A DNA stretch of 64,000 nt. Source: Agarophyton chilense. Taxonomy: Eukaryota; Rhodophyta; Florideophyceae; Gracilariales; Gracilariaceae. The stretch is from NCBI GenBank assembly GCA_030374765.1, contig JARGXX010000092.1, forward strand, positions 496,001 through 560,000, in the 5' to 3' direction. Below the pieces are notes generated by a model. That model searched no databases and was not told where the DNA came from. It worked only from the letters and a program-made list of their open reading frames with translations. How positions within the stretch are numbered: position 1 is the first letter of the stretch; the number at the start of each line of letters is the position of its first letter. A program made the position numbers and the translations under genes. Positions 7,769 to 37,926 of the stretch are shown one piece after another.

Positions 7769-9664
7769 CTACGGAAAGCCCGAGGAGTTACCCGCCCCAC
7801 CGTTGGGATTCTGACCCTGATGATACGCCGAGGCGAAAGCCGACATCTGGCTCACATCCGTCATACCCGGGGGAATCGGAATGCCCGCGTTCACGAGGCC
7901 TTGTCGCACACTATCCGCTTGCGGAGGGGCAACCGGCGCCTGCACAAGGGTGTTCACACCCCACCCGGAAGGAGCAGATGGACCGCCACCGGATGCATTC
8001 GCCGCCGCAGCTGAGGTCGTTCCCACTGGTTGGAAGGGTGCAGATGGCTCCACAGGGAGTACTCCACTAGGAGCTGGCATGTCATTATACAACGCTGGAT
8101 CGTCCAGGTCTACTGGAGGCTTGTACTCGTAATCGTCGGTATAAATGAACCTCGTCGGGTGTCCCACCGGCATCGGTCGAGGCGAGTCCATCAGCGCCCG
8201 TGCTTGCGCCGCGCTGATGCGAACCCCTTCGAAGTGATTGTAATAGACCCAGTTACCGGAGCCCGAATCGTACTGGCCAGGAGACTTGTCTCGCGCGGAT
8301 CCTTCCCCTGCAGGCTGATTTTCCACTGGAACTCGATCCCATTGGGTGTTGTCGATCACGTCCAAGATTGGATACAGGTTCTGCACGTTGCTGACCGAAC
8401 CCAACGCTGGGACAAGGTCGATCTGACGCATGATGGTCCGTAGCATTGGAGGAATATACCAGATACGGAAATGGTCATGAGCATCCCTGAGGAGGTGCGC
8501 CGCTACGCGGGCTGCCCACTCGGCTGCAACGAGGGCCCATTATCCCGAGTTCGGGTCGTGCATCAAACGAGACCCGATATAGTAGATGCATGGGGGCAGT
8601 TCAGCAAAGCACCCTCGGGGGACCTCGACCTTACTCCACCAAGCTGGAAGGGGCACGAATCGCCCAACCTTCGCCGTGTTACGGATACGCTCCAGTTCCA
8701 CGTGAGGATACTGGACAAGGAACCCGAAACGGGAGCGCGAGCGGCGCTCGAAGCGCAAGCGTCGATCGAACCCATACTGGGTAAACTGCCGTTGAAGGTA
8801 CCTGAATTCAGCCCGAAGGATGGGACGACTCCATTGGAGCATATCTTCTCGGAGAGGAAAACCCGGTCCGCGGAACTCGGCTTCGGGAAAGGCTGCCAGG
8901 TTATCCCCGTAGGAGACCTCACCGTACGTGCGGTAATAGGCGACATCGAACGCGTACTCCGGGGGAACCAGATGGTCAAAGCGTGACCTTTCCAATCGCT
9001 GGTAGGCCAAAGCCGCCATCGCTGCGCGCGCCTTGTCCAGGGACTCCCCGCGACTGCGGTATAGATACTGAGGCTCTATGGCTACCCGCGCCCTCCAATC
9101 GGGAGAACGTACAACCTCGACAGGTAGGCCACCCGGCAATAAGCCGTCCTCCACGTGGGAGTCGATGAGCTCATCGTCGCGAACCGCTGTCGGATGGAAC
9201 CACGGAGGGCGGGAATATATCACCGGATCGGTAAGGGGACTCCACCTTCGAAAGGATTCGTTTGAGATCCAACCTCTGGAGTTTCCTACCAAGGGCATCG
9301 CATGAGCGGAATTCCACGCCACCGCGTTAATGTCCAAATCCTCCTGAGGATGTCGGTTGCTCGCCGAGGCGGAAGGTTAGGTACCTGACGGAGCCGCATC
9401 AAAACCGGAGAAATATCCACCCTGCCGGGGAGCTTCGTTGTCCGCCGGCGCGGAGGCCGACGGCCCCGAGAGTGGGTTGATGACGTATGGGTTCATTCCC
9501 TTGAGAGGGCTGGTTGAGACTGCTGTTGCGAGAAGTTGCTTATCGCCAAAAGTCGGAGGAGTAGAAGAAAGTTGTACCGATGTGCCGGTTTTGTGGCGAT
9601 CCTCAGAAGTGGTGAAGGACCCCATCGGGAGAGAAGTATATATAGTGACCGGAAAGCGAGACAC
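7769..9664 (-). pseudogene. E1 antisense gene (aORF), two in-frame stops
   Basis: A 632-codon frame on the strand opposite gag-pol, starting 43 bp from the 3' LTR and reading toward pol. It is interrupted only by TAA at 9377-9379 and TAA at 8540-8542; the second stands where E3 has Leu. Conserved blocks shared with E3 and E4: GGYFSGF near the N-terminus, PWFHPTAV, RPILRAEFR, the segment around RFGFLVQYPHVE, FAELPP, and a C-terminal GMTDVSQM region. No known domain is recognised, and no signal peptide or membrane segment is evident. The first codon is GTG at 9662-9664 with an upstream stop 30 bases earlier; an ancestral ATG may have mutated. Function unknown. Confidence 0.75.
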
Positions 9665-9693
9665 CCGCGGCTCGGAATGTTCTTCCTCGTCTT

Positions 9694-9706
9694 AAGGAGG
9701 GGGAGA
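9694..9706 (+). promoter_or_regulatory. E1 3' polypurine tract
   Basis: aaggagggggaga immediately before the LTR start tgtagtgcaac. It is the plus-strand DNA primer site of LTR retrotransposons. Confidence 0.8.
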
Positions 9707-10629
9707 TGTAGTGCAACGCCCAGTTAGGGGATACTTGAAGATGCAACTCATAGAATGAGGGTTGAACCCTCCGAGGGTTATGACTATAATCCCTTCTAAG
9801 GTGTGCTGAGGTGGCACGGTTTTCTGGGTAGAGTTCGCCTATGAAGAGAAGATTCGGATGGCCTATGGTTGGATTGGCCCCGTGATACACGTGGCTTAAT
9901 TGTGGCACCGATGTTCGGATATTTGTTAGAACGTTGGACTTTTGGGCCCTGACAGTGGGATCTCCACGTGTATGGCCCTGAGCAGGTGTGCACTACTGTA
10001 ATTAGTAGAGTTTAGTTAGTGGGCCCTACTTAGGGAGACGAGATCTGACAGTCCGAAGCTCAGAGTAAATGGGAACCAAGGTTGGTCTTCGATACCTTTA
10101 GAGGTTCTTCGTCGCCATCGTTTCGGCCTTACAACCCGGAACGGGCTCTGGTTAGCAACGCCTGCGTAGGGACACGACTCCACTTGGAGAGTGCCCACGT
10201 TTGGGTTCCGTGCAACCACCCCCTTGGGACCGCTCAGACGACCTGCGTGCACGAAACCCCGTGGGGGTTCTGCTTACTTGTTGCGTGCTTTTTGTGTTTC
10301 CTTCCGAGGACAGGTTTTCGCCCCTGTATTGGGTTTCTTTTGTTGTTTCGCCCCTTTTCTGGTTCTCGGGTCCGGTGCCTGTTAGTGCCCGACCCTCGCC
10401 CCGTTTTTCCTCTTCGCCGGATTTTCCCCCATTCTTTGGGATACCCATACCCATTCCCGACCCAACGATTTCTACCCCTCACCTCCGTCGGTACTGCCGG
10501 AATCCCCCGTGGGAGTAACACCCCACACTACTGGTGGAACGGAGGGCTCTGTCTCTGAGTCTGCCTCCCCCAGGGAGCAAGGCTTCAAACACCTTGAGAG
10601 CACTTCCCATCGCCGGGTTTTGCTCGACA
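9707..10629 (+). repeat. E1 3' LTR
   Basis: Starts tgtagtgcaac after the polypurine tract and is taken to end near tgctcgaca at 10629. Its second half follows the E3 and E4 LTRs in outline (pyrimidine-rich stretch near 10310-10440, then a tail ending in ...ACA). The partner 5' LTR is outside the window, so the end point is inferred from where similarity to the E3 LTR begins (about 10632). Small open frames inside it are not credible genes. Confidence 0.65.
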
Positions 10630-10933
10630 CACGTGAGAGCCGTTTTCCAGGACTTGGTTGTTTTTCCGCCTCGGGCGATACTTGTGAGATCTATGAGTAA
10701 TACCGCTTCTAGCGGGCTGGCGTAGCCAGGTGTATACGCGTCGTACGCGAAGTGCACCGGCGGCCGTGCGCCGTGGCCCCGATTCGGGTGTGACTTACCC
10801 ACGTGTACCACGGGTGGCCCAGGACAGGTTGGCACAGCATAGCCGGATATTTCTCTATTTATTTAGCTTTATTACACTAGGATAGGGAGCTCTTGACAGT
10901 ATTCTACACTATATAGTGCCAGGGCGATCTCGC
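10630..10933 (+). repeat. E3 5' LTR, left part
   Basis: Matches 33189-33485 of the right LTR from cgtgag onward with about 8 differences, four of them CG in this copy and TG or CA in the other. It includes the palindrome cactatatagtg at 10907-10918, a TATA-like candidate promoter. It is interrupted at 10933 by E2. Confidence 0.9.
10929..10933. repeat. Target site duplication of E2, left copy (ctcgc)
   Basis: ctcgc directly before the E2 LTR and ctcgc at 22505-22509 directly after the other LTR. The unoccupied site is seen once in the right LTR of E3 near 33486 (gatctcgccctgac). Confidence 0.92.
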
Positions 10934-11496: not shown

Positions 11497-11509
11497 GACC
11501 CCCCTCCTA
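11497..11509 (-). promoter_or_regulatory. E2 3' polypurine tract
   Basis: On the minus strand ctaggaggggggtc lies directly before the LTR start tgtagtatag. It is the expected plus-strand primer. Confidence 0.8.
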
Positions 11510-11889
11510 GAGCGCGCGACGTCCTTGGAGCGCCAATATCCTAGGCGGTAGCTGGTTGAGCGCGCACCGAGCTGACACGGCGTTACGTTCGCGGACCGAC
11601 ACGAAACGCGCTAGAAGCGACCGGTCGCGTTATACGGGCCCGTTCGGAGATCCGCATTGTGCCACAGCCGCTCGGAAAGGCCTCTAATAGCGCAGCCGTC
11701 CGGGAGTAGACGTTATATCGCAGCCGTTCGGTGGTGCCCGTCAAATCGCGCCCGCTGGCGAGCGGTCGTCGGTGGTGTATTTAAGCACGTCTTTGTCCCG
11801 GGCGGAGTGACGGGTAGACTCCAGAGAGGACCGTTGCGGCAGTACCGAAGAGTACGGACTCAGAGACCGCGTGTCCGTTTGGTTCAACC
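11510..11889 (+). other. E2 leader upstream of the antisense gene
   Basis: About 380 bp between the polypurine tract and the start of the antisense gene, where E1, E3 and E4 have only about 35-43 bp. It holds repeats of the type gcagccgNtcgg, including CCGTTCGG at 11640 and 11724. No open frame is convincing. It could contain the promoter of the antisense gene; no clear TATA box is seen. Confidence 0.5.
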
Positions 11890-14375: not shown

Positions 14376-15389
14376 GTCAGTCCGCCTCGCGGTGGGACAT
14401 GAGTAAAAGATCCTAGCATCGCCATCATGCTTCATGGCGCGAGCCACGGTGCAGCGACGCGTGCGGGATTGCGGTGCTTGCGCGCGCGTTGCCACACGCG
14501 TGCGCCACGCGCGTGCTTTACCTACCGGTGCGTTTGCAGACTTAGAGTGCACGTGCCGTTACAGCAATGCCCGGCTAGGTCGGTATCCGAATCGGTATAC
14601 AGTAACGCGCATAGTGCACCTTTGCGTCTGCTCAAAAAATCACAAGTCTTTTGGCCGTGCGGAGAGTCCAAATCGGGCATTCTCAGAGCCTGCGGCGGCT
14701 TCGTTTCCGAGATATCGGCCAAGACATTTTTCCGCGTTTTTGATACCATACGGGGCGGTAATTTCCGCGTCGGATTTTTTTTGATTAGCCTTGCAGGTAA
14801 CCGCTCGGTTTGGCGTGTGGCGCAGTGCGTATACGCTTGTTGCGGGTATGCACGCGGGCACCGCCGGCGCGGGCAGGCACCGAGTGCCGTGTTGTAATCG
14901 GTGTACGTGTGTTGCTTGGCTCCAGGCGGGCTGCAGTGCCGGAGTTACCGAGTATATCACGGTAATGGCGTCGGGGGGTTGTTGGTCGATGTCCATGTCC
15001 GGTCGCAGGGGGGTACGGTGCCGACGGAGTCGCACACAATCGCCCTCTTCTCCCCTTTGCCGCACGGTAGTTCAGCACACGCTAGTGGTTACCGATCGGA
15101 GGTGATTCCCAATGTTCGGCCGGAGGCCATGTCCAATTTTGGGATTCCCTCAGTGCTGAGGGAGTCGCACGGAGTCACAACAGACGCTGATGAGTGCCGA
15201 TCGGAGGTGAACACACGCTGGTGAGTGCTGATCGGAGGTGAACACACGCTGGGGAGTGCCGATCGGAGGTGAACTGCAATGTTCGGCAGGAGGCCATGTC
15301 CGATTTTAGAATGCCTCCTATCGTTCGGCTTGTATCCACCCCCCCTTCTAGATGCGACGGCCCCGCCCGGCGTACAGTTTCATGCCGTT
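14376..15389. other. E2 convergent intergenic region
   Basis: About 1 kb between the ends of the antisense gene and pol. It holds a CG-alternating stretch near 14475-14518, an 8-bp perfect inverted repeat tccctcag/ctgaggga at 15146-15163, a 60-bp direct repeat (15092-15151 and 15259-15317) and the 31-bp tandem array at 15191. No gene is seen; small open frames look like chance. Confidence 0.6.
15191..15275 (+). repeat. 31-bp tandem repeat, 2.7 units
   Basis: Units start at 15191, 15222 and 15253 and read tgagtgccgatcggaggtga followed by acacacgctgg. Units 1 and 2 differ at one base; unit 3 is partial. The unit core recurs at 15092. Confidence 0.9.
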
Positions 15390-19498: not shown

Positions 19499-19590
19499 AG
19501 CGTCTACAGGGCGTCGCTCCGTCAGGTCGGAGGTCGTACCCGTGTAATCCGATTCGGTGAGGCTTTCCGGCCTAGGAGAGTCGTGCGCCT

Positions 19591-21867: not shown

Positions 21868-21921
21868 CGCATGACTCCTTTTCCAGATCTGATCTAACCC
21901 GTTCGGTAAACACGAATCCCA
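21868..21921 (-). other. E2 leader between PBS and gag
   Basis: Short untranslated leader of about 54 bp. It contains CCGTTCGG at 21899. Confidence 0.5.
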
Positions 21922-21941
21922 CTTCTAAGTCGGGAGACTAA
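21922..21941 (-). promoter_or_regulatory. E2 primer binding site
   Basis: Minus strand ttagtctcccgacttagaag directly follows the 5' LTR. It matches the E3 PBS at 16 consecutive bases (tctcccgacttagaag). The complement ends ...agactaa instead of agacca, so the first bases have mutated. The tRNA is not identified. Confidence 0.7.
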
Positions 21942-22504
21942 TGTGAGATAGCGCCGAAAGGCGTGTAAGTTTCCTAGAGGCGCGATCCGTGCGGAGTCCG
22001 TAGGCGGGGCGTGCGTGTCACACGAGGCCGGTCGGGGAACGGTGACGCGTGGAGACAAGCGCCAGAACCGGGCGGTCGTAGGGAGACTAGGCGGTTGGGA
22101 ACGTCAGGCGCGATCGAAGTACGCGCGAAGAGTCCGAACGGCTTGTAAACCTGTAGATATCCCGTGCGAAGTAACGCTTCAGGTCTGCTTTAGAAACGAT
22201 ACTTAGACTAGGACGGTGGTGCTTACTCTTTACTGTTTGGTGGGTGGCGGGGAGCGGAGGTGCATAAGTAGTGTGCACCTCCGAGCTGCAACCCGCATTA
22301 CAGTCCGTGGTGGCGCCTGCACCCACGTGGCGGAAATATCATTGGGTGGGGGACGCCAACTACCTACAACTATGCTACGTGTTAACCTACTGTATATGTC
22401 CGTCCGATGTGCCATCTTCGCACACGTGTGCGACCAGGCCACTTGCACTCAGTCCTGACCACGCCCTTCTTACCTGACAACCCGCTCGGATTCACTATAC
22501 TACA
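21942..22504 (-). repeat. E2 5' LTR
   Basis: Partner of 10934-11496, with identical length and ends. It drives gag-pol on the minus strand. Confidence 0.95.
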
Positions 22505-22509
22505 CTCGC
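22505..22509. repeat. Target site duplication of E2, right copy (ctcgc)
   Basis: Second copy of the 5-bp duplication; the E3 LTR resumes directly after it. Confidence 0.92.
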
Positions 22510-22987
22510 CCTGACACTCAGTAAACCTCCCCAACCAGGGTTCTTGGCTCTAAGTCTTTTTCCGCTTTCGCGAGTCTTCCACACTCTACGGAGGTGAAGC
22601 CGCGTTACTAACGGTAGACTTATCCACCCTGCGTCAACAGGAGACTCACCGCTGTTAGCGTGTATATCTTTCATACCCCTGCCGTGTTCTCGCCCCAGTC
22701 TTGGGTTTGATACATATTTTTTTTGGCTCTCGTGGCCCATGCCACCGATCGCCCCCACTGGGTGGTCCCCCCTTTATCACTTGCCCACTCCCGTGGAATA
22801 CAGCTCATACCTGGTCTGCTCCCTTCTAGCATCCCGCACTCTCCCCGCTTGGCGTGCCGGTGAACCTCGGCCTTACACCCCGACTTAGTCGTGTTCACTC
22901 CGGAGAGGCTCCGTCGCCGTGCTACCCTCCTTGGAGGAAGACTCGGACATCTTCGTGTGTTTCCGCCGCCCTTGGCGTTGCAATACA
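22505..22987 (+). repeat. E3 5' LTR, right part
   Basis: Continues the E3 LTR after E2. It matches 33486-33969 with about 6 differences and ends gttgcaataca, against gttgcactaca in the right LTR. Confidence 0.92.
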
Positions 22988-22990
22988 AAC

Positions 22991-23008
22991 TGGTCTCCCG
23001 ACTTAGAA
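22991..23008 (+). promoter_or_regulatory. E3 primer binding site
   Basis: tggtctcccgacttagaa, three bases after the LTR. It begins TGG, as complements of a tRNA CCA end do. The deduced acceptor strand is tcgggag with discriminator a. The tRNA is not identified. Confidence 0.75.
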
Positions 23009-23147
23009 GGCTAGGGGAACCTGGTTTGGTTGTTTTTCACATTGCTGTGCTGTCTTCTCTCGTCGAGATCTGCTTTCCTATTTCTTGGTTTGGACCCACT
23101 TGGTGGAAGCTTTTGTTGTCCTCTTCTTAGTGGTCAACGCTACAACC

Positions 23148-25319
23148 ATGTCACGACTACCGTCGGAAGCGGAACCCGCGATCACGCGGAGCCGTTCCGT
23201 CAATGACGTGGTGCCTGCGGACCCTGGAAGGGTTCCCCCGCCGCTACCTCATGCCGCTCCGAAAGGCAAGAGTAAGGGGTCGAACTCCTCCAAGAACAAC
23301 AAGCTACCGCCTAAGGCGTCGAAGAATGGACCCAATTCTGGTGCTGGACCGGCCCCTGCCGTGGATGACCCGGCTCCTGCCGACGAAAAGGCCCAGAAAA
23401 ACGAGTTCCACATCGACACCACCTCAAGTGTGAGGCAGCAGATCCGCGTAATGCGGGAAGCGCACAATGCCTTCGTGGAACAGTTCGAAGCCCTGCGTTC
23501 CGGGTGTGATGGCTCTTCTATGAAGGAAGTGGTTGACGACCTCCGCTTGTTGCGGGCGGACGTCAACACCTTGTTGGAATCTTTTGGTGGTCCCGCTGCT
23601 TACGTGGAAGGTGTCGATACCCGATTCAATCGTGTTAGCGCCCGTCTCCAGACGTTAGAGCAAACCATCTTGATGGAAGACGTCCCGGAGAAGCCGGTTG
23701 CTGTGTCGCACCAAGCGAAACACGAGAGGAAAAGGGACGATACCCGCCGTCGGCGTGGAAATCGTGACAGCAATGACTCGGACTCGTCGAACTCCTCACG
23801 GTCGTGGCGTGGCTCTCACCATTCAAATGGGTCGGACTCGTCAGATTCATCTTCTGACGATGGCCATCGCAGGCGTTCATCCCGTTCTAAACGGTCGTCT
23901 GCCACCCAAGGTCTGATCCGCGCCTGCGAGAAGGGAAGGAAACACTCCGGGTTGAAGGAGCTGAAATGCACCAACCCCCCGTACAAGAAGTTGGTTTTTT
24001 ACCGATACTATCGGCTAGGGAACTCCTCTTTGGATCGCACGCCCCGTGCCACGGGTAGAGTGAAGGATTGCATAAAGCGTATGAAACTGTCCCTCAGGAA
24101 CCAGAGCTTTTCTGGAGAAGACCCCATTTTGGTGTTGGATTTCCTTGCGAGGTTCGTCGCCGAAACGGATATTCTCGGTATGACCGAAGGACAGGCGTTT
24201 ATTGCACTGCCGTACTTTATGAAAGGCCTCGCCGAGAATCAATACAACTCTGTAAGAGGTTCGTCTAGAGCCTCCGAAGGAGGGGTAACCTGCTGGCCAG
24301 AAGCAGTACAATACCTCTTGAGGTCCTACGCCACTAATCACGCGATTCAGTCGGCCATTCTCGCTCTTCGCGATACGCGCCAGAAGTCTGGAGAAACGGA
24401 AACCGAATTCTCGGTGCGCCTGAACAAGGCTTTCCACCGTAGTGGGAAGGTACACTCCGCCGGAGAGCGCTGCACCATGTTCATCGATGGACTGGAACCC
24501 GCTATCCGAACACTCGTGGCCCGTTACCGGGAAGACCGAAGGAAGACCACGTATCTGGAGTTGGTCCAACACGCGGAAGCGGAAGGTGACGCTTTAAGAG
24601 CTCGTGCCCCCGGACACAGGTCGCGAACCGCCAAGGTGTTGGTGATGGAAACGAAGTCGCCATCCCTATCGCTGGTTGCGATTGAGCGCCCCCAACAGGA
24701 GTACGACAACGTACACTTCGCCCGAAGCGATATCCATTCGGTCCCGAGAACCGAACTACCGTCTACGACGGACGACTCATATGACACGGCCCAGGATGGA
24801 CCCCTGCTGTACGCAGACTCTTCCCGTGTTCACGGACCTGGCATCCCGTATTCAAACGGTGCGCTCCGACAGAGTCGCCCTGGATGGAAGGATACCCGCC
24901 AAGCGGTGAAGTTCACGGATGCTCGCTCCGGTTTGCAGCCCTCACGCCCGGGAATCATATGCCACATATGCTACGAACACGGTCACATTTCACCGGACTG
25001 TATCCTCACCATGAGGGAAGTAGCCCGAGTAATCGGTAATTATGAGGCGTTGACCCCAGTGGAAAAGCGGATTGTTCCGATGACGTCGTATCTTCGAGCG
25101 AAGATCGATTTTCCACGGAGTATTCCGGAGGCGAAACCGCGCAATGCGTTGCTTTACCCTGCCGAGCAGGCTCCGGACCACCGCCCCGTTCCTTCAAACC
25201 CCGCCGCTGGCGCCCCATTGCTAGTGGTTCAGGATTCTGAGGCCCCGCCCCAGGCGAATGGGACTCAGGAAAACTCATTTCGGGAGTCTTCCCTTCGGGA
25301 GAGGCGTCCCCAACAGTGA
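23148..25319 (+). CDS. gag: E3 gag polyprotein, intact (723 aa)
   Basis: Open from ATG at 23148 to TGA at 25317-25319; the frame is open upstream of the ATG, but this is the first Met and it is followed by MSRLPSEAEP. Order: Pro/Lys-rich N-terminus, a helical region around residues 90-190 (heptad-like), a Ser/Asp/Arg-rich tract around 220-275, the capsid-like region shared with E1 and E2 (about 290-510), and a CX2CX4HX4C zinc knuckle near 24960-25001. Expected role: virus-like particle assembly and RNA packaging. Pol lies in the -1 frame and is open across the gag stop. No break is seen, which is unusual in this window. Confidence 0.9.
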   Translation: MSRLPSEAEPAITRSRSVNDVVPADPGRVPPPLPHAAPKGKSKGSNSSKNNKLPPKASKNGPNSGAGPAPAVDDPAPADEKAQKNEFHIDTTSSVRQQIRVMREAHNAFVEQFEALRSGCDGSSMKEVVDDLRLLRADVNTLLESFGGPAAYVEGVDTRFNRVSARLQTLEQTILMEDVPEKPVAVSHQAKHERKRDDTRRRRGNRDSNDSDSSNSSRSWRGSHHSNGSDSSDSSSDDGHRRRSSRSKRSSATQGLIRACEKGRKHSGLKELKCTNPPYKKLVFYRYYRLGNSSLDRTPRATGRVKDCIKRMKLSLRNQSFSGEDPILVLDFLARFVAETDILGMTEGQAFIALPYFMKGLAENQYNSVRGSSRASEGGVTCWPEAVQYLLRSYATNHAIQSAILALRDTRQKSGETETEFSVRLNKAFHRSGKVHSAGERCTMFIDGLEPAIRTLVARYREDRRKTTYLELVQHAEAEGDALRARAPGHRSRTAKVLVMETKSPSLSLVAIERPQQEYDNVHFARSDIHSVPRTELPSTTDDSYDTAQDGPLLYADSSRVHGPGIPYSNGALRQSRPGWKDTRQAVKFTDARSGLQPSRPGIICHICYEHGHISPDCILTMREVARVIGNYEALTPVEKRIVPMTSYLRAKIDFPRSIPEAKPRNALLYPAEQAPDHRPVPSNPAAGAPLLVVQDSEAPPQANGTQENSFRESSLRERRPQQ

Positions 25320-26249
25320 GGTTGACGACGCCCGAGGCGTTTCCGCCTCGCTCCCCGGTCACAATCCTCACGAGGAAACAGGCCGTCTCAGACGTGGACT
25401 CTGAACACTTTGGTGTTCTACGTCGACCGTGGAAACGTGTTCGTAACCGCCGGTTCCCGGATAGAGTCTTAGTAATGGCCAAGCGCAATTACAAGGTGTA
25501 TGCCGACCTTGGTCTTTCTACGGAGTTTATGGTTCGAGTCCTTACTGTTTTGGACACAGGTGCTGGTCCGTATTTAATCGTGGAGTCGCTGCTGCCCCCG
25601 CCCTTGCGGTCTCAGATCCGCCTTGGCGTTGCGCCCGACGTCGCGGACGCGAATAACAACCCGTTGTCAACGGTTGGAACCGTCGCTTTCGTCGTTCGCT
25701 TGGGCTCCTTCGTGGTGAAACTCGACTTTATTGTATGCCGGAAATTGGCTGCCCCCATCATCTTAGGATGTGACTTCTGTGACAGATTCGTTGACGCCAT
25801 AAGGCCCCGCTTAAAGCGTGTTGAGATGGAAGACGGCTCGTCAGTCCCGATTGTCCGTCGTCCACTGCGGCGTGCCTCCAAGAAGCACGTACCCCCCCCC
25901 TGCCGCGCAGGAACCTTCACCCACTTCTCGGGAGTCTACCAAGCTCCGCGTGGCTGCGTCTGTCCAAATCCCGCCAGAGTCCCAAGTATGGGTGCGTGTC
26001 ACTTCCCGTCAACACGGTTTACGAGTCATTCAGCCTCTCTCATCTCTGTACGATGGATATCAACTCGCCGTGGCGAATGGAGTCTCGCAGATTGTCCCAG
26101 ACAGGCCGTTCACCGTGCTCGTTGCCAATCTGGGCTCCACCCCCCAGTCACTGGTAAAAAACCAAGTTATTGGATCGGTAATGCCTCACCCCACCGCGAT
26201 GGTCCACATTAGGCTGACCGCTGCCGAAGTCCTCGGTCTCGTTCACTCT

Positions 26250-26265: not shown

Positions 26266-29200
26266 CTGCCGTCCAATCACCGAATGATTCGGAATCGCAA
26301 CCTGCCGAAACAGAAAAGAAGCCCGTTACGACGAGTTACGACCGGGTAGACGCCGTGAAAGAACTCGAGGAACTCGACCTCGGTCATGTACCGGAGTCAC
26401 ACCGTGAAAGTCTGCGTGAGATGTTACGGGAGTTTACCACAGTGTAGGATGGCTCTCTTGGTGAGATAAATACAAAGGAACACCGGATAGATTTATTGCC
26501 GAACACCCGACCGGTGGCTCAACACCCTTACAGGGCAGGCCCCAAGGCTCGAGAAGAGGAACAGTTCCAAGTGGACAAAATGCTCCGAGCTGGAGTGAGC
26601 GAACCGGCTCAGTCGCCGTGGGCATCCCCAGTGGTACTGGCTCCGAAACCCGATGGGTCCTGGCGCTTTTGCATCGACTACCGTCGCTTGAATGATGTTA
26701 CCGTCAAGGACGTGTATCCGTTCCCACGAATGGATGAGTACATCGACTCTCTCGGCACTGCTACCGTGTTCACGGCTTTGGACGCCAATTGGGGATATTG
26801 GCAGGTTCCCGTTAGGGAGGAGGACCAAGATAAGACTGCGTTTGTCTGTCACTCGGGACTCTACCGTTTCAAACGGATGCCTTTTGGTCTAACCAATGCT
26901 CCCGCTACCTTTCAGCGTGCTATCGACGTTTTGTTGGCCCGCTTTAAGTGGCGTACTTGCCTTGTCTATTTCGACGATATCATTGTATTCTCAGACAATC
27001 TGGATGACCATCTCACCCATGTCAGGGACATAATGACCACGCTACGTGATGCTGGAATAACCCTCAAACTGAGGAAATGTGAGTTCTTTACCGATACTGT
27101 GAAGTATCTCGGGCACATTATCCGTCCTGGACGTGTAATGATCGAGGAAGCTCGAGTTAGGTCCCTTCGCAAGGCGAAAGAACCCGCTACCCAGACGGAA
27201 CTGCGGTCCTTTCTAGGATTGGTCAACGTCTACCGACGGTTTATCCCTAACTTCGCTGACATCGCGGCCCCCTTGAACGCGCTTCTGCAGAAAGGTCAAC
27301 CACTTAAACTGAACCCCTTTACGTCCGCCCAGACGGATGCTTTTAACTCCCTTAGGGAGGCTGTCACATCAGCACCGATTCTATCGTTACCGAAACCCGG
27401 ACTACCGTTTTCCGTGGACACGGACTCTAGCGACTACCAGGTAGGCTGTGCGCTCTTTCAAACTACTCCCGAAGGAGAACGCAAACCCATTGGGTACTGG
27501 TCACGCTCGCTCAATGTCCACGAGCGGAACTACTCCGTGTCAGAGAAGGAGAGCCTCGCAGTTGTGTGGGCCCTCTCTACACTCCGCCCCTACCTCATGG
27601 GTGTGCACTTTACCGTTTACACGGATTACTCGTCCCTACGATGGCTCATGACCATCTCGCAGCCGTCAGGCCGCTTAATGCGTTGGAGACTCCGCCTCGC
27701 GGAATATGACTTTGAAGTGATCTACAAGAAGGGCACTCAGAACGCGCAAGCGGACGCGCTCTCGCGTTTACCCACGAATGGGGAAGCTCTAGCCGTCGAT
27801 GACGAGGATATACCTTGCTTCGTCGTAGACGATGGAACACCGGGGGACCCGGATTGGTTACAAGATAAATGGAACGAAAGCTCGGAATCGGATGATGATA
27901 TTGACGCATTGCTCGTCTTGGACGATTCAGAGAAACCCCCGCCGGGTAATTTTGTGCCGATACCCCCGGAGGAGATAAGCAGAGAGCAGCAGGGTGAACC
28001 CTTCTGTACGAAGATTCGCGCCTGGCTTAATGGCGGTGCACAAATCCCTTTCGAGGTGAACGATCTTGGATACCTCGTCAGGACGGTTCAGTCATCCCCA
28101 CAAGTCGTGGTGCCGCATACTCTACAGTCTAGAGTTTTGCATCTATCGCACTATGCGAAACTTGGTGGACGCGCCGGTGGACGGAAGCTCTACCTCACTT
28201 TGCGAAGGAATTTCTACTGGCCCGCCATGGCAGTGGATTGCTACGCAACGGTGCGGTTTTGTACCGAATGTGCTAAGAATCGGGTGAAACTTCGCAAGGA
28301 CTCAACGAAGTTGAAACTATTCCCGGCACGGGCTCCTTTCGAGTTTGTCGCCATTGACATCCTCGGTAAGCTCCTCATCACACGACGTGGGCATAAGTTT
28401 TTACTCGTTATCACGGATCGTTTCTCAAAACTGGTTCGGACCGTACCTTTACGGAAGATATCCGCTTTCACGGTTGCACAAGCATTTGTATCCCATTGGG
28501 TATTCGTCTACGGCCCGCCGGTTAATCTTCTATCTGATAACGGAAAACAGTTCGCATCGCGATTCTTCGAGGACGTGTGCAGGATTCTCGACATCAAGAA
28601 CCTGTTCAGAACGACCTATCACCCCCAGTGTAATGGGCAAGTGGAGCGGTTTAACCGAACGCTATTAGCGTCTCTCCGTTCTTACGCGGCCGACCACCCA
28701 AAGACATGGGATTTATATACTGACGCCTTGACGTTCGCGTACAATACGCAGGTACACCGTACTACGGGCTTGACTCCATTCGAACTGGTCTTGTCCCGCC
28801 CTCCGCCCGCTGTCGCGTTAGAACCCCAGCCCACGCTGGATGCGTTCCCTTCCGTGAAGGATTATCGCCACAGGTGGAAAGAGTGGCTTACGAAGCTGAT
28901 CCCGGTCGCCCGAAGCTCAATGGCTCGTGCCCAAACCTCTTACAAGCGTGATTTCGACTCTCGCATACGCGGTAAGGCCCCGCCAATCAAAGCTGGTGAC
29001 TTCGTTTTCGTCCGTAAAGAGTACTGGAACCCTGAAAAGGAAAAGAAGCACAAGCTTTCTTCCGTCGCGGACGGTCCTTACAAGGTCATTTCGGTGAAAG
29101 ACGACACCATCGTGGTGGAAATTGTCGACGCTCATGAGCGGATCTCCCGCGACCGCGTTGTACTCGCCCCTCCACCGACGTTGGAAGTAACCGAAATGGG

Positions 29201-29423
29201 TCAACAATCCCTCTCTGAGGATGATGGTGCTCGGCACACAACAGTGGCTCAGCCCACTGCCGTGGTTTCCAGACCTTCTGCGTTACCACACCCTACCCGG
29301 GGACTCTCTGACTTGCCGATCTTATCGAACCAAGGCCAGAATGGCCTCTCTTCTCTCACGCCACGGCGCGGTGTCTACCCCCGCCCGTTGGGCGTTTCAA
29401 CCACTCCCCATGCCGCTCCGTCT

Positions 29424-29439
29424 CAGGAGGGGGAGGAGG
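29424..29439 (+). promoter_or_regulatory. E3 internal polypurine tract 2
   Basis: caggagggggaggagg in the integrase-chromodomain linker (encoded QEGEEA). Its first 11 bases equal the 3' tract of E3 at 33163. Confidence 0.5.
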
Positions 29440-31023
29440 CTCATAACTCTCGTCGAGAGACGGAAACTGCTTCGTCGCGTCATGAAAACCGTGGTGCACG
29501 GACTCCTGGACACACCAGCAAGAAAAACGGGGATCCGGACGTCCCGTCTACCGACGTGCCATCTCCGCATTTGCGCGCTACAGCCGTTGCTGAACCCTCT
29601 ATGGTAAGCGCCACCGCATCTGCGTCTGATCGCACTCCCCACGGGGACTCTACTCAACAGGACGCACCACGTAGTGGAAACCCTCTCGCTGAAGCGAAAC
29701 CGAAATCGTCGCAGAATGCTGTTCGCCCTCGCGATACTGGACCGGCTATGCCGTCGAGCGTTGACCCGCAGCCCGTGGGTCACGGTTCGTCGACACCAGC
29801 TACGCTGGAAAACCTAGAGCACGCCCTCGCAGGCCCCTCTAGGCCGAATCGATCGGAAGTGGTCCCTCGTACTGTACGGCAGGACACACCGGCTAAGCCG
29901 GTCAAGCACACCGTAGCAGACGAGAGATTCACACCCAGCACGCTTGATGCTGGTTCAGAACCCGCGCGCAGTGGCGGACGCACTCAGAGTATCTCAGTTG
30001 ACCCCGACCGCGTTGTCGAAGGCGCACCGGTCACCCCGGAGAATGTGCCCGTCAAGGACGGAAGCACCTCGTCGCCGAGTGAAGTTGAACCTTCGAAAGG
30101 GATAGTTGAGGACGAACTCGCTCCCCGCAGGGGTTCCTCGCCGCGCACTTCGCCGCCCGTTGGTGAGGAAGGCACGGTTGACCCGGAGTTGCACGCCCGT
30201 CGCGGTACTTTGTCGCCCAAGCGAGCAGCCATACCGGCAGCGCCGTTGCACACGCCCTCACGTGAGGAGGCGGAACGCAGCACGGCGCGGAGTACTCTCA
30301 GCCGTCAGCCGGACGTGTCACGTGACCAGACGACACCCGGCTCGGGAGATACGCCAATCAACACCCAAGGCGGCTCACCCGGCAAGGCACGACGCCCCGT
30401 GATGAAACCGCCTCCAGCGTCAAGTCCAGCACCGTCGCGACGGATTTCACCCCGACGACTCGTGGAACGCGACTGCGAAACCCTGCCTTGGGATGAGTCC
30501 GCGTTCCCCCGAAGGGTGGCCTCTGCACGAGAACTCTCGGAAAGCATTCTGACCCAAAAACTGGGAGAATTGCCCCACGGGAAGGCCTCCGGCCGAAGCC
30601 GTCGAACTGACGCTCTTCGTCATGACGCCTTGGCGGAAGCAACCCTCCAAGCGGCCAAGGCAACTCGGAACCCGGTTCGTTCCCCTACCCAAGGCATGGA
30701 AAGGCATCGCCAACCCATGGAACCCTTGGGGGAAGGGCACATTAGCCCGCACGCACCTGCGGACGTACACTGGTTTGGTCCGATGACGCGTACACCGCAA
30801 GGGCGGGAAGTCTACGAGAAGGAGTTCGTGGTCGACCACATAGTGAAGCACTCATACCTTTCTGGATGGTTATATTAAATACCTCGTCCGTTGGTACGGT
30901 TTAGGGCCCGAATGGGATTCGGATGAGCCGATGGAACATCTCCCACGTTCGAAGGTGGTCTCATATCACCGCAGAACGCGGACGGGAATCCCGGCATCGC
31001 TTGTTAAAGCCCAGGTGGGATAA

Positions 31024-31202: not shown

Positions 31203-33140
31203 TCACGGGTTCGGCTCACCGCCCCCGGGTTGGTTACCTCCCTGGAGGCGGGTGATCAAGGCCTCGCGCATCGCGGCAACATCGCCACTCGCTGCGTTGG
31301 TCCCCAGCCCCACCTGTCGCAGGAACTGGGAGATCACGGCCGCTTGACCCGCCGGAGCGGAGCTCGCATCTCCTGGGGCGGACGCCCCACCACTTGGGAG
31401 ATTCACCGGTGGAACCGGAGGTGGTCCAGCTACCGCGTACTCCGATCCAGCCCCCGCGGGGTTATCAAAATCCACGTAAGGCGTGGCTGGCGTCCCCGCG
31501 TTATAGGGACCTTCCGCTTCGGATCCCTCGACCTCCGCCTCGGCGTACGCTTCCCCGTCGTCGGGTTCGTTGTCCACCATTGGATCGTCGCCGTCGTAGA
31601 CGTGATAATATTCATCCGCGTCCACGAAACCGATCGGATGCCCCTCGGGGATATGGCGTGGTGCGAACCGGAGTTCGTTCGCTTCCTTCGCGGTGATTTC
31701 GTGCCGTTCCCAAGGGTCAATGTATACGAAATCACCTCCCAAGGGAGTACGCCTTTCTGGTGACAGGTCCTGACCCCGGCTACCCACGGTGCGCCCGCTT
31801 TGTTCAATCGGAACGGTGGTCCAGTCCAACTGGTCGATGTAATCGAGAAGACCCGCCACTTCTTCGGCGTTGGGTACTCCACGAAGTGGGATGCTCAGGT
31901 CCAGGCTGCGAATCGCGGACCTCAACCGGAACTGGAGGAACCACAGTCTGTACTGGTCATACACCTCCCAGAGGATGAACACCGCCGCGCGGACTGCCCA
32001 TTCGGTAATCACCACGGACCACAGTCCGGACTCGGGATCCTCGATGAAGTACGAACCGTAATACGTGATGACTGGTGGCAGCTCGATGTAACAGCCCCGG
32101 CAGGCCTCGAGGTTCGACCACCACGGTGGAATGAGGACATAGCAACCCCGTCGGTCGGCCACGCGAAGGCGTTCGATCTCCACGTTCTGATACGGGACCA
32201 AATACCCGACTCGGGATCGTGCTGGACGCTCGAAGCGGATCAGGGCGAGGAAGTTGGCCCGCGCAAGTCGACGCATGTAGCGGAACTCTGCCCGGATAAT
32301 CGGTCGCGTGCAGCACACGGCCTCTTGCTGCGCTATCGGGATGCCCCTCCACGAGAGTGTTTCCAAACCTGCCAGGCGGTCGACGTAACCAATCTCACCT
32401 TGAGTGCGGTAAAGCCGAATGTCAGTGCCGAGACCATCGGTGATGGGATATTCGAAAGGAGCCCGGCGAAGCCGTTGATGGCCAAGAAGGACGAAGGCCG
32501 CATGAGCGGAAGCCAAGGTTTCCCTACCCCGGCGCGCCACAGCGTAAACCGGAACCGCTACGCGGCGTCGCCAATCCAACGAAGTTGTCACCACGGCCGG
32601 AATATCGCCCGGCAACATCCCGTTTCCATCGGTGTACATCGCTATGAGCGCTTCGTTTAACACCGCAATCGGGTGGAACCACGGCGCAAGCCGGAGAACG
32701 GACGCATGATGCCCAGGATGGCGCCCGACAAGCATGTCGTATGGCGGCCACCCTCTCGGGGGGAACATTCCGTACGGAACAGCAGCCGCGTTCGCGATAG
32801 GAATCTGGGGCGCAGCCGATGACGCCCTTTGCGGAAGCGGAGCGGACCGGAAGGCGGAGAAGTACCCCGCAGAGAGACGGTTGGGTTGATTGTTTTGGTT
32901 GCTCATTGGTGAGCGAAGAGGCCGGATGACCGGAAGAGGAGACCGGCGAAGCGAAAGACGATGCCGAGGAATCGGAGGACTGGCACGCAAAGAGGCGGAT
33001 TCGGTTGAGATGGAAGGTTGAGAACGGTTGTTGCCAGGAGACTGGAGTTTTGCCGCACTGCGTTTGTTGGCATCGGATGAAGTGGATCCCAGCGAGCTGG
33101 TTGCACTCTTCTGCATTCGTCTCGGCGCGTCGCCCACCAT
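31203..33140 (-). CDS. E3 antisense gene (aORF), intact, 645 codons, unknown function
   Basis: Single open frame from ATG (33138-33140) to the stop at 31203, convergent with pol and starting 36 bp from the 3' LTR. N-terminal 100 residues are Ser/Arg/Pro-rich and end in AGYFSAFRSAP, a motif shared with E1 and E4. The folded-looking centre has PWFHPIAV, RPIIRAEFRYMRR, VGYLVPYQNVE, IELPPVITYYG and VVITEWAVRAA. The C-terminal part has HPIGFVDADEYYHVYDGDD, an acidic/Gly/Ala-rich spacer and a terminal block VVISQFLRQVGL. No recognised domain, signal peptide, membrane span or Cys-rich motif. Conservation of the frame in four copies argues for selection. A promoter in the 3' LTR reading inward is the simplest expression route. 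Its role is unknown; candidates include a silencing or regulatory factor and a structural protein. Confidence 0.85.
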   Translation of the reverse strand: MVGDAPRRMQKSATSSLGSTSSDANKRSAAKLQSPGNNRSQPSISTESASLRASPPIPRHRLSLRRSPLPVIRPLRSPMSNQNNQPNRLSAGYFSAFRSAPLPQRASSAAPQIPIANAAAVPYGMFPPRGWPPYDMLVGRHPGHHASVLRLAPWFHPIAVLNEALIAMYTDGNGMLPGDIPAVVTTSLDWRRRVAVPVYAVARRGRETLASAHAAFVLLGHQRLRRAPFEYPITDGLGTDIRLYRTQGEIGYVDRLAGLETLSWRGIPIAQQEAVCCTRPIIRAEFRYMRRLARANFLALIRFERPARSRVGYLVPYQNVEIERLRVADRRGCYVLIPPWWSNLEACRGCYIELPPVITYYGSYFIEDPESGLWSVVITEWAVRAAVFILWEVYDQYRLWFLQFRLRSAIRSLDLSIPLRGVPNAEEVAGLLDYIDQLDWTTVPIEQSGRTVGSRGQDLSPERRTPLGGDFVYIDPWERHEITAKEANELRFAPRHIPEGHPIGFVDADEYYHVYDGDDPMVDNEPDDGEAYAEAEVEGSEAEGPYNAGTPATPYVDFDNPAGAGSEYAVAGPPPVPPVNLPSGGASAPGDASSAPAGQAAVISQFLRQVGLGTNAASGDVAAMREALITRLQGGNQPGGGEPNP

Positions 33141-33162: not shown

Positions 33163-33175
33163 CAGGAGGGGGATA
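33163..33175 (+). promoter_or_regulatory. E3 3' polypurine tract
   Basis: caggagggggata directly before the right LTR. Confidence 0.8.
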
Positions 33176-33969
33176 TGAAGTGCAACCCTCGTGAGGGCCG
33201 TTTTCCAGGACTTGGTTGTTTTTCCGCCTCGGGCGATACTTGTGAGATCTATGAGTAATACCGCTTCTAGCGGGCTGGCGTAGCCAGGTGTATACGCGTT
33301 GTACGCAAAGTGCACCAGCGGCCGTGCGCCGTGGCCCCGATTCGGGTGTGACTTACCCACGTGTACCACGGGTGGCCCAGGACAGGTTGGCACAGCATAG
33401 CTGGATATTTCTCTATTTATTTAGCTTTATTACACTGGGTTAGGGAGCTCTTGACAGTATTCTACACTATATAGTGCCAGGGAGATCTCGCCCTGACACT
33501 CAGTAAACCTCCCCAACCAGGGTTCTTGGCTCTAAGTCTTTTTCCGCTTTCGCGAGTCTTCCACACTCTACGGAGGTGAAGCCGCGTTACTAACGGTAGA
33601 CTTATCCACCCTGCGTCAACAGGAGACTCACCGCTGGTAGCGTGTATATCTTTCATACCCCTGCCGTGTTCTCGCCCCAGTATTGGGTTTGCTACATATT
33701 TATTTTGGCTCTCGTGGCCCATGCCACCGATCGCCCCCACTGGGTGGTCCCCCCTTTATCACTTGCCCACTCCCGTGGAATACAGCTCATACCTGGTCTG
33801 CTCCCTTCTAGCATCCCGCACTCTCCCCGCTTGGCGTGCCGGTGAACCTCGGCCTTACACCCCGACTTAGACGTGTTCACTCCGGAGAGGCTCCGTCGCC
33901 GTGCTACCCTCCTTGGAGGAAGACTCGGACATCTTCGTGTGTTTCCGCCGCCCTTGGCGTTGCACTACA
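33176..33969 (+). repeat. E3 3' LTR (794 bp), holds the empty E2 site
   Basis: Starts tgaagtgcaac and ends gttgcactaca (imperfect inverted ends). Uninterrupted at the site where E2 sits in the 5' LTR. The palindrome cactatatagtg is at 33465-33476. Confidence 0.92.
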
Positions 33970-34419: not shown

Positions 34420-35243
34420 AAAAGGCTTTGATATATATCAGCCACTCAGTAGACGACAATCAAATTTTTTATATAGAATCGGCGAAGTCAGAAACAAAAG
34501 CATGGAACGAATTGTCAGAAGTATATGAAAACTAGAGAATGGCAAAAAAGTAACTTAAAAGAACAATTCGTTTCAAAGAAACTAAAAGAAAAAGATTTTC
34601 GAAATGCGAATATTAACGAACTGAAACATTAAAAAATCAGATTATATCAAAACGGTGCTCAATATTCCAAAAAATACATTATGCGTCGATTGTGAAGTCA
34701 ACCAAAATCAGACGAAATTCTTGCAGTGATTTTCTAAAACTGTTCAAAAATAATAACAATCAAAGTAACTCATGCCAAAATCTTGCGGGAAAAGTCTCGA
34801 AAACTTCTACATCAGAAAAAGAACAAAACGAAAAATTCCTTCAAGGAAAACTTGTCAAGAAAAATTCAGACTTTTCTTTCATCTGTCATTACTGTCAGAA
34901 AAAGAACATAGAATTGGAGACTGTCACACAAAAGAAAAGGAGGAGAAGAATAATATCTACAAAAATAGAAATCACATTGGAAACTCAACAAACGAATCAA
35001 TGTATACAGGACAACGGGCGGAAATTTTTATAATAACCCAACCAGAACACGCAAACCTGGTAGGAACATGGTACTTGGATTCAGGAGGATCGGTTCACAT
35101 GACGAAAAATCAAATGTGGTTTGTCGCGAACAGTGTACAGAAAATCGAATCTCTCACGATTAGGCTTGGAAAAGGAACCAAAATCACATCAAACATATAA
35201 AAAAATGTTGAAATGCACAAAACAGGAAATAAGGAAAGTAAAG
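34420..35243 (+). pseudogene. Copia family B copy 1: gag and protease relic
   Basis: AT-rich degenerate coding sequence with several stops and frameshifts. Readable pieces match family B copy 2 at 57379-59255: a YISHSVDDN segment near 34435, SLENFYIRK, and a nucleocapsid piece with HYCQKK. The retropepsin follows with WYLDSGGSVHMTK (near 35069-35107) and RLGKGTKITSNI. This is the Ty1/copia gag-protease arrangement. The frame stops mid-domain at 35243, where the LTR of E4 begins, so E4 inserted into it; the missing part is not found beyond E4. Confidence 0.75.
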
Positions 35244-36132
35244 TGTAGGACAACGCTTGGAGCGGAGACACCACGAAGATGTTCGGGATCTTCTTCTATT
35301 GGGAGACACGCCTCAGGCGGAGGAGACGCCTCCCAGCGGAGCACAGAAACAGAGCCACTCTGGAATGGCACGACGAAGTCGGGTGTAAGACCGATGCAAA
35401 TCTGGTGGGATATACCTAGAGTGTTTAGGTGAGCACGGCACAGTCCGGGGTGTGACCAATCCTAGGCGGAGCGGTACCACGGCGATTGTCGGAAAAGGGA
35501 GCGACGAAACACTCGTATGAGGTGGACGAGCGGGGTGAGTGGGGCGGCCACTCACGAGAGCCAAAAAGGAGAACAAGAGGAAAACGGGGGCGAAACCCTA
35601 CACAGGGGCAAGACTACGACAAGTGTCGGCGATTAAATATGAACCCACGGTGGTGGTAGCACTCTGGTTGACAGAGGGGTGGATGAACTAATGTGCAACG
35701 GGCGCTCACGCCGTATGTGGTGAAGACGCGCCGAAGGCGAAAAGTTCAGAGCCAAGACTCCCTCCTTGGTATCTCCCAAGGGGGTGTTTACTGGGGAGCA
35801 GTGCTCAACCTCCTAAGTAGTGTGGCGCGCAGCCCCTGGCAGTGGGCGCGCGCCCGAAAAATAGACACAAAATAGCGATAGCGTAGCTATATAAAAACTG
35901 AAAATTACTAAATAATACTAACCATTAGGTAGAATCCGGGCCACGTGGGGCACGCCTCGCACTCGAGCGTCGGCATCAATGCAGTCCACGTGTTCCACCA
36001 GTGTGCACTTCCGGTCCTAACCGGCCGTCGGCACGCAATAGCAGTATAGCTTGTCATAGACCAAGCTAGTCCTCAAGCGAGCGAAACCTCTAAGTCCTGG
36101 GAAGAAACCCCCTTGAAGGGCATTGTCCTTCA
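35244..36132 (-). repeat. E4 3' LTR (889 bp)
   Basis: On the plus strand starts tgtaggacaac and ends ttgtccttca (inverted ends). It aligns in outline with the E3 LTR, including the end region around the motif cacgaagatgttcgg. Left flank is copia B at 35243. Confidence 0.85.
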
Positions 36133-36147
36133 TATCCCCCTCCTTAG
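36133..36147 (-). promoter_or_regulatory. E4 3' polypurine tract
   Basis: Minus strand ctaaggagggggata directly before the LTR. Confidence 0.8.
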
Positions 36148-36167
36148 TTGACGAACACGCCGTCGAC

Positions 36168-37926
36168 ATGGCGGGGAGGCAACGGTCCAACCGGCATAAT
36201 AGCGAGCCGCGTAACGCGTCCAGAGACCACTCGACTGTCGAAGGCCGAGCTGCACAACCGAACGACAAACACACCATCGCGGTAACCACTCCTCGAACTC
36301 CGAGAGCGCATCTGCATCGTACACCAACCTCTAGCGATTATATCCCGATACCTCGGCGACCAGTACTCCCGATGAACGGTGGTAACGATCCCCGCCGGGG
36401 TTACTTCTCCGGTTTCCATTCGGCTCCCCCTCCACGGGGGAGTGCCTCGTCAACCGCGCCGAGCCGATCCCGGGGTCCCGTTGAAGCTTCAAGCCACATC
36501 ACTCCTACGGAGGACACCTGGCCCTCTTACGACGAACTCGTCGGGTTAAACCCACGTCAACATGCGGCGTTTCTCCGGAGAGCTCCGTGGTTCCATCCGA
36601 CAGCGGTCTTCGACGAAGAACTGGTGGCGTCGTATGCTGATGGCAATGTGCGTCTCCCGGGCGAGGTGCCGGCTTGGTTACTCACGGATCAGCCGGGCGA
36701 ACTTCCAATACCCCATCCCCGACGAGTTCGGCTTCGACCTACGGATGTACTGGACGCAGGGTGAGATCGGCTATTGGGACCGCCTTACGGCGTTGGAAGC
36801 TTACGCATGGCGCGGTCAACCGCGAGCGCGTCAAGAAGCGATCTGCTCGGCCCGTCCGATCATTCGTGCCGAGTTCCGTCACCTTCGTCGTGAGTCCCGA
36901 TATCGGTGGTTACAGAACTTCATCCGCGAGGAGCGTCGGGGCAGATCCCGCTTTGGGTTCTTTGTCCCTTATCAGAACACGGAGATAAACCGGATTAGTC
37001 CCTTCTATCAGTTCGGGCGATACTTTCCCCTGCCTGGGTGGTGGTCCTCCGTCGAGGCGTGCCTGGGATGTTACGTGGAGTTGCCTCCAGTCGTCTCCTA
37101 TCTGGGCTCGTACCTCATCGAAGATCCGCACTCCGGCTTATGGTCCGTGGTCCTAACCGAATGGGCAGTCCGCGCCGCGGCGTACATCTTGTGGGAAGCC
37201 TACGACCAGTATCGACTGTGGTATCTTCCTCCGCGTTTGCGTGGTTACATCCGGCAGATGGGCTTTCAACTCCCTCTTGGAGGTGTCAATAACGCTGATG
37301 AAGCTCCGGAGCTCATCGACATCATTGGGCGTGTCGACTGAGCTTTCGTGCCTGTCCGGCAGAGCGGCCGTGGTCAAGAAGCCGGTGGGGCTGATCGGTC
37401 TCCCGGGCATCGCACGCAGTTGCCGGGGGATTTCATCTTCTTTAACCCATGGGAGCAGCAAGAGATCTCCGAGACGGAGGCGTCGGCTTTCCGGATGGCT
37501 CCACGAGGTATACCATACGGGCACCCTGTGGGGTTTGTCAACTCGGATGACTTCTACTACGCCTATGGCGGTGATGGTCTTCCGGAGGAGGAGGGCAAAT
37601 ACCGTGGCGACGAGGTCATGGAAGACGTGGGAGACCCCGATGGTGCCGATACTACGGCGCGGCCGGCGCAGGGAGCGACTCACGCAGGTGCGGCGGTCGA
37701 TCCAGTGGCGGCGGCGCTGCCGGACGAACCGGAAGTTATCGAGGTTCCCGTACGACCAGAGGCGGTTGTGATCTCCCAGTTCCTTCGGGGTGTTAGACTG
37801 AACGCGCAAGAGGCGAGCGGCGACATCTGTACGATGAGAGATGCCCTCGTGGCACGCCTTACCGGCGGGAGTAACTCCGTTAGCGATTCGGTTGGCGCGC
37901 ACGGCAATCCGGGTTCTTCCAATTAA
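36168..37926 (+). pseudogene. E4 antisense gene (aORF), one deletion-frameshift and one stop
   Basis: ATG at 36168-36170, 36 bp from the LTR. The first frame runs to about 36690 with RGYFSGFHSAP and PWFHPTAV. About 40 codons present in E3 are then missing, and the sequence resumes one frame on with YWTQGEIGYWDRL, RPIIRAEFRHLRR, FGFFVPYQNTE, VELPPVVSYLG and TEWAVRAAAYILW. TGA at 37339-37341 stands where E3 has Trp. The rest is open to TAA 37924-37926 with HPVGFVNSDDFYYAYGGDG and the terminal VVISQFLRGVRL block. It is the closest relative of the E3 gene in this window. Confidence 0.8.

What the first reader, a model, noticed from the sequence alone, without database searches (positions are those of the whole stretch)
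31203..33140. A conserved convergent gene of unknown function in four gypsy elements
Seen: E1 (9664-7769), E2 (11890-14375, opposite strand), E3 (33140-31203) and E4 (36168-37926) each carry a 586-828-codon frame antisense to gag-pol, between the chromodomain and the 3' LTR. In E1, E3 and E4 it starts 36-43 bp from the LTR. Shared blocks in E1/E3/E4: GYFS-F-x-AP, PWFHP-AV, RPI-RAEFR, NVE or NTE, ELPPV, EWAVRAA, and a terminal VVISQFLR in E3/E4. E2 is much diverged yet keeps NVE, TPPVLAYY and EWAV in order. The frame is preserved although copies differ a lot, and breaks are point mutations, as in gag-pol. Known: some plant gypsy elements (Retand/Ogre-type) have antisense extra ORFs; I recognise no homologue of this one. 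Inference: an element-encoded accessory protein expressed from an inward promoter in the 3' LTR, perhaps a transcription or anti-silencing factor.
Basis: partly seen in the sequence, partly recalled or inferred. Interest (0 to 1): 0.92.

Follow-up and report, generated by a model that had tools for sequence, protein, structure and literature searches.

The report
Red-algal retrotransposon antisense protein family
Jumping genetic elements in a red seaweed genome carry a real, selection-preserved gene read backwards from their tail end, encoding a protein of unknown function whose predicted fold matched no solved structure in the searches made.

Summary
Four Ty3/gypsy elements in the window carry homologous frames antisense to gag-pol, between pol and the 3' LTR; only E3's is intact (645 aa). 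One capped search lists 68 E3-type copies at 90% identity or more, 25 of 68 stop-free in the matched stretch. Others add E1-, E2- and E4-type and more diverged families. The frame faces the pol tail in 64 of 68 E3-type and 12 of 12 E2-type copies. dN/dS is 0.67 among young copies, diluted by dead ones, and 0.25-0.59 between older lineages. Named relatives found are all Gracilariaceae red algae. No Pfam match. AlphaFold2 gives a confident, mostly helical core (pTM 0.86) without a Foldseek match at E 0.001 or less. Antisense ORFs in this place are a known kind in plants and Botrytis (PMC7264820, PMC11963269, passages seen). Here the protein is different by the tests made, and the elements are red-algal with chromodomains. 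Best guess, unproven: a nuclear accessory regulator expressed from an antisense promoter at the 3' LTR.

The parts
31203..33140 (-). E3 antisense ORF, 645 aa, intact; folded core residues 127-495, disordered N-terminus 1-126 and acidic linker about 499-600, weakly predicted C-terminal helices 598-632
   Evidence: 68 copies listed in the genome
33181..33964 (+). E3 3' LTR (TGCAAC...GTTGCA); its inner edge is 40 bp from the antisense ATG
33163..33180 (+). E3 polypurine tract next to the 3' LTR; lies in the presumed 5' leader of the antisense mRNA
   Evidence: read by eye; inference
33465..33476 (.). palindromic TATA-like site CACTATATAGTG in the LTR, about 336 nt upstream of the antisense ATG; exact in 28 of 30 fetched copies; promoter function untested
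10632..10933 (+). left part of E3 5' LTR, split off by the E2 insertion
   Evidence: 97.4% to 33190-33491
22505..22982 (+). right part of E3 5' LTR
   Evidence: 98.8% to 3' LTR
23007..25319 (+). E3 gag-like frame, 770 aa, with a CX2CX4HX4C knuckle (motif recalled, read by eye); no Pfam gag match
25241..26212 (+). E3 protease-region frame (weak gag-asp_proteas hit, E 0.22)
26448..30878 (+). E3 pol frame: RT, RNase H, integrase, long low-complexity tail; frame stops inside the chromodomain-like stretch (read by eye)
7772..9723 (-). E1 relative of the antisense ORF, broken; 93.6% to L035
11818..14372 (+). E2 relative of the antisense ORF, broken; ATG at 11890
11778..11785 (+). E2 TATA-like box TATTTAAG; the next ATG downstream is 11890 (context ACCATGG)
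   Evidence: promoter role inferred
36060..37923 (+). E4 relative of the antisense ORF, broken by a frame change and at least one stop; 82-83% to L049

Best explanation
Ty3/gypsy elements of a Gracilariaceae-like red alga, with a chromodomain at the end of pol, carry besides gag and pol a third gene in the opposite direction between pol and the 3' LTR. SHOWN: the frame is conserved across several families, faces pol, and is under purifying selection in the lineages that transpose. SHOWN by prediction: a disordered N-terminus, a compact mostly helical core of about 370 residues, an acidic linker and weakly predicted C-terminal helices. INFERRED: it is translated from an antisense RNA that starts in or beside the 3' LTR. 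INFERRED, most likely mechanism: the protein enters the nucleus and acts in trans as an accessory regulator of the element (its transcription, its silencing by the host, or nuclear handling of its cDNA), as proposed for plant aORF-3R proteins and reported for some retroviral antisense proteins. Confidence: about 0.95 that it is a real element-encoded protein; about 0.45 for the nuclear-regulator role.
For: Copies and relatives. Facing pol: 64 of 68, gap 344-345 bp in most; 12 of 12 E2-type. Selection: (dN/dS 0.67 in frame against 0.73-1.10 in the other five frames; changes private to one copy are flat over codon positions, 157/147/154, while shared changes favour position 3, 49/43/77, P 0.003); between lineages. 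Divergence of the ORF ranks like that of pol: over one shared stretch of 184 pol residues E3 is 76% to E4, 71% to E1 and 50% to E2, and the ORF is 52%, 36% and 23% to L049, L035 and L061, which stand for E4, E1 and E2. Nuclear hints: PKKRxRL near the C-terminus in 4 of 4 copies of the L063 clade (0 of 4 other rows of A6), and PPKKRA in 2 of 4 Agarophyton chilense products; basic clusters near the N-terminus of P0004; acidic linker in E3. No hydropathy peak above 1.6 in five of six. Confident core.
Against: No transcript, protein or localisation data. The NLS-like patches are not in all members: E3's own N-terminus is basic but has no classical NLS, and its RRR/RRGR patches lie inside the folded core. 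No DNA-binding fold was recognised. Among young copies dN/dS is high: 0.67 on average, 0.78-0.94 in three of seven young pairs. Four of 68 ORF copies had no listed pol tail; only 22 of 59 E1-type copies had one in a capped list.
Confidence: 0.5

Rival explanations
1. The protein is a structural or RNA-binding particle component (a second nucleocapsid-like protein) rather than a nuclear regulator.
For: Arg residues among the invariant core positions (R223, R245, R308 in A3); disordered tails; evolves at least about as fast as gag (E3-E1: gag 50% over 241 aligned residues; ORF 35-37%).
Against: E3 already has a gag frame with a zinc-knuckle pattern. Particle proteins are normally made from the genomic RNA in sense; an antisense gene uncouples dose and timing (general knowledge). 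No gag family match for the ORF.
Confidence: 0.18
2. It is an integration or nuclear-import cofactor that acts with the chromodomain integrase on the cDNA.
For: Found on elements with a chromodomain match; basic patches in one clade; ORF and pol divergence rank alike.
Confidence: 0.15
3. The antisense RNA itself is the functional product (dsRNA or siRNA control) and the frame is incidental.
For: Antisense RNAs of LTR elements can be regulatory (discussed in PMC7264820, passages seen).
Against: Frame-specific constraint, protein-level homology down to about 20% identity and a confident fold point to a translated product.
Confidence: 0.04
4. It is a captured host gene, carried along with no role in transposition.
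For: Origin unknown; extra genes can be transduced (PMC7264820, passages).
Against: Seen in four lineages in the window and in many genome copies, facing pol where that could be checked. Protein searches found few relatives elsewhere, none named as a host gene of known function, but those score only about 8000 word-sharing candidates of 5.8 billion and the eukaryotic coverage is unknown, so an ancient capture is not excluded.
Confidence: 0.08
5. It is an Env-like or cell-to-cell movement protein.
For: Position between pol and 3' LTR is that of env.
Against: Antisense orientation; no hydrophobic stretch typical of a membrane span in E3 (maximum KD19 1.57, at a predicted core helix) and only one of six above 1.6 (L062, 2.09; threshold recalled).
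Confidence: 0.04

Closest known systems
Plant antisense additional ORFs between pol and 3' LTR (aORF-3R: Grande gene23, RIRE2, Retand, PvRetro13; also Botrytis Boty), PMC7264820 (passages seen)
   Same: Place (pol to 3' LTR), antisense direction, presence in several families, no settled function; Grande GENE23 is reported there as nuclear.
   Different: Different host group (red alga); protein without Pfam match; the profile searches returned no plant protein at the thresholds used.
Retand TRP28 (PF04195) antisense proteins, PMC11963269 (passages seen)
   Same: Antisense between pol and 3' LTR; suggested DNA-binding or regulatory role.
   Different: Retand is described there as non-chromovirus, with TRP28 seen only in flowering plants; here a chromodomain match is present and PF04195 was not found.
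HBZ/APH-2 antisense proteins of HTLV (described in PMC11963269 passages)
   Same: Minus-strand gene at the 3' end of the element; the working analogy for a nuclear regulator.
   Different: No sequence relation found; no bZIP family match (that HBZ is a bZIP protein is recalled).
Hypothetical protein BWQ96_03215 of Gracilariopsis chorda (P0002) and unnamed products of Agarophyton chilense (P0008-P0011)
   Same: Homologues: 43% to P0001 and 58-79% to L063; both species are Gracilariaceae.
   Different: Listed as hypothetical or unnamed; their genomic context was not seen.

Membership tests
antisense aORF between pol and 3' LTR (positional kind) | Lies between pol and 3' LTR, opposite to gag-pol | tested here: met
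   E3 directly; 64 of 68 E3-type and 12 of 12 E2-type copies face a pol tail; LTR-end hexamer 40 bp from the ATG in 26 of 30 fetched copies
antisense aORF between pol and 3' LTR (positional kind) | Kept in many copies and several families | tested here: met
   lists are capped
antisense aORF between pol and 3' LTR (positional kind) | Transcribed from an antisense promoter | not testable with these tools
   no RNA data; TATA-like sites only
Retand TRP28 proteins | PF04195 domain | tested here: not met
   0 of 12 members of A3 with any Pfam match at E 1 or less
Retand TRP28 proteins | Carried by non-chromovirus elements | tested here: not met
   Chromo match in the pol tail of E3-type copy L005, E 1.9e-5, 24.9 bits against cut-off 25.1; weaker in E4, E 0.027
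Env-like aORF | Sense orientation and membrane spans | tested here: not met
   antisense; hydropathy
Gag | Gag or zinc-knuckle domain | tested here: not met
   no Pfam match; the separate gag frame has the knuckle
HTLV HBZ-like antisense protein | bZIP domain | tested here: not met
   no Pfam match in P0001 or the 12 members
any known fold | Structural match in PDB | tested here: inconclusive

The most novel reading that the evidence does not exclude
A previously undescribed, red-algal superfamily of retrotransposon-encoded nuclear proteins with a new fold, expressed from an antisense promoter at the 3' LTR and acting as a trans regulator or anti-silencing factor. It would be an HBZ-like strategy evolved independently in red algal chromoviruses.
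Probability: 0.3. Interest if true: 0.8.

Novelty: new variant of a known kind. Interest (0 to 1): 0.6.

Why it matters
Antisense genes between pol and the 3' LTR have been described in plant and fungal LTR elements without a settled function. An apparently unrelated, well-folded protein in the same place on red algal elements suggests that the same niche was filled more than once, so the position itself may matter (antisense, LTR-driven, separate from gag-pol). Many copies, stop-free ones among them, and a confident structural model make the question testable. If it is an anti-silencing factor, it could show how these elements escape host control in red algae.

Tried and rejected

Limits: the E1 linkage count (22 of 59) rests on a capped pol list (103 scored of 4074 candidates) and on 59 of the 98 rows that I chose by eye as E1-type. 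A first pass used only 27 of the 103 pol rows and gave the same 22; one of the 59 also had a same-strand pol tail 4.8 kb away. For other E2-like families one search used 21 of the other 113 rows (plus one E2 row repeated by mistake) and 36 of 77 pol rows; 7 of those 21 had a facing pol tail. dN/dS used 29 of 30 fetched copies of 68 listed; one of other length was dropped and stop codons were skipped in the counts. One search shows 19 chosen pairs. Changed on checking: the ORF/pol rank comparison used different pol stretches, so it was repeated on one shared stretch, with the same order.

Full report
WHAT WAS CHECKED. The E3 frame is real: 652 codons stop to stop, 645 from the ATG at 33140 to the stop at 31203. 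None of 2000 dinucleotide shuffles reached that length (maximum 460). tblastn with fetched genome copies confirms that E1, E2 and E4 hold broken relatives. E1 belongs with L035 (93.6%), E2 with L061 (95% and 91% in two frames), E4 with L049 (82-83%). The link of the very diverged E2 type and its kin to the E3 type is firm by profile comparison (98.1% probability, E 7e-14).

WHERE IT COMES FROM. The window lies in a 79.8-Mb genome of 135 contigs. The named relatives are a Gracilariopsis chorda hypothetical protein (43%) and four unnamed Agarophyton chilense products (58-79% to L063); both species are Gracilariaceae, Rhodophyta. So the source is probably a red alga of that family (inference).

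ANATOMY. E2 (10934-22504) sits inside the 5' LTR of E3, with the 5-bp target duplication CTCGC, and splits that LTR into 10632-10933 and 22505-22982. E3's 3' LTR is 33181-33964 with ends TGCAAC...GTTGCA; the two LTR parts are 97.4% and 98.8% identical to it, so the insertion is fairly young (inference). In sense E3 has a gag frame with a CCHC-type pattern, a protease region with a weak match, and pol with RT, RNase H and integrase. A long low-complexity tail and a chromodomain-like stretch follow; the frame is interrupted there in this copy, at 30878 (read by eye). In the copy L005 the pol tail matches Pfam Chromo (24.9 bits, cut-off 25.1); in E4 the match is weak (E 0.027). The antisense ORF faces this tail. 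Its ATG is 40 bp from the LTR, and the polypurine tract lies between them.

A SUPERFAMILY. One capped search lists 68 E3-type copies at 90-100% identity, 25 of the 68 without a stop in the matched stretch. Searches with P0003 (98 matches, overlapping the first list) and with an E2 piece (125 matches) add E1-, E2- and E4-type copies and further families at about 28-40%, several with long open frames. Facing a pol tail: 64 of 68 E3-type, with a gap of 344-345 bp in most; 12 of 12 E2-type; 22 of 59 E1-type with a capped pol list. In the other direction, 18 of 82 E3-type pol tails had no ORF in the capped list, and 4 of 68 ORFs had no listed pol tail. Over one shared stretch of 184 pol residues E3 is 76% identical to E4, 71% to E1 and 50% to E2. 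The ORF gives the same order: 52%, 36% and 23% to L049, L035 and L061, the nearest copies of E4, E1 and E2. This fits descent together with pol, on four elements only.

SELECTION. Among 29 E3-type copies dN/dS is 0.67 in the ORF frame and 0.73-1.10 in the other five frames. Changes private to one copy are flat across codon positions (157/147/154, P 0.84), as expected for dead insertions. Changes shared by two or more copies favour third positions (49/43/77, P 0.003). In 19 chosen pairs, nine pairs at 13-24% protein divergence give dN/dS 0.35-0.59, and three pairs between types give 0.25-0.31 with dS near saturation. Seven young pairs give 0.42-0.94, three of them 0.78 or more, which is told here against the claim. 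Together this is the pattern of a protein kept by selection in transposing lineages and decaying after insertion.

MECHANISM. Expression has to come from an antisense transcript. In E3 the ATG is so near the LTR that an LTR promoter is the simple reading; a palindromic TATA-like site, CACTATATAGTG, lies about 336 nt upstream in 28 of 30 fetched copies. These copies are young and alike, so this conservation says little. In E2 a TATA-like box starts 112 nt upstream of the first ATG, in the stretch between LTR and ORF; that ATG is not kept in the fetched E2-type copy L061. These are sequence hints only. For function I favour a nuclear accessory regulator. PKKRxRL is kept in 4 of 4 L063-clade copies and PPKKRA in 2 of 4 Agarophyton products, but neither in the other 4 rows of A6. 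P0004 has basic patches and a SUMO-interaction-like VIDLVSDDE with a VKTE (motif meanings recalled). There is no hydropathy peak above 1.6 in five of six, and the element already has a Gag. E3 itself lacks a classical NLS, so the role is inferred at about 0.45.

WHAT IS KNOWN. [quoted passage not shown] GENE23 of Grande is reported as nuclear, and Retand carries TRP28. No word beginning with 'alga' occurs in either main text. PMC5970526 (passages) reports that LTR elements make up 17% of the Gracilariopsis lemaneiformis genome, without this gene in the passages seen. PMC12115072 and PMC12477816 were seen only as passages. I therefore file it as a new variant of a known kind: same place and direction, unrelated protein by the tests made, different host group.

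VERDICT.

Noticed in passing
10934-22504: E2 is inserted inside the 5' LTR of E3 with a 5-bp target duplication (CTCGC), so E3's LTR is split over 11.5 kb.
   Followed up: yes
29150-30800: About 500 residues of low-complexity-looking sequence lie between integrase and chromodomain-like stretch in E3 pol, with no Pfam match beyond the integrase and SH3-like parts.
   Followed up: no
34432-35244 and 58482-59257: Inverted pair of diverged repeats (74-75%), another repeat family in the window.
   Followed up: no
P0004 residues 822-836: A SUMO-interaction-like VIDLVSDDE followed by a VKTE sumoylation-like motif in one distant relative.
   Followed up: no
L049, L061-L066, P0001, P0002, disordered parts: Recurring short motifs: PIPRR-like and GYFSGF/GYAV-like near the N-terminus in several types, PKKRxRL near the C-terminus in the L063 clade.
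   Followed up: partly
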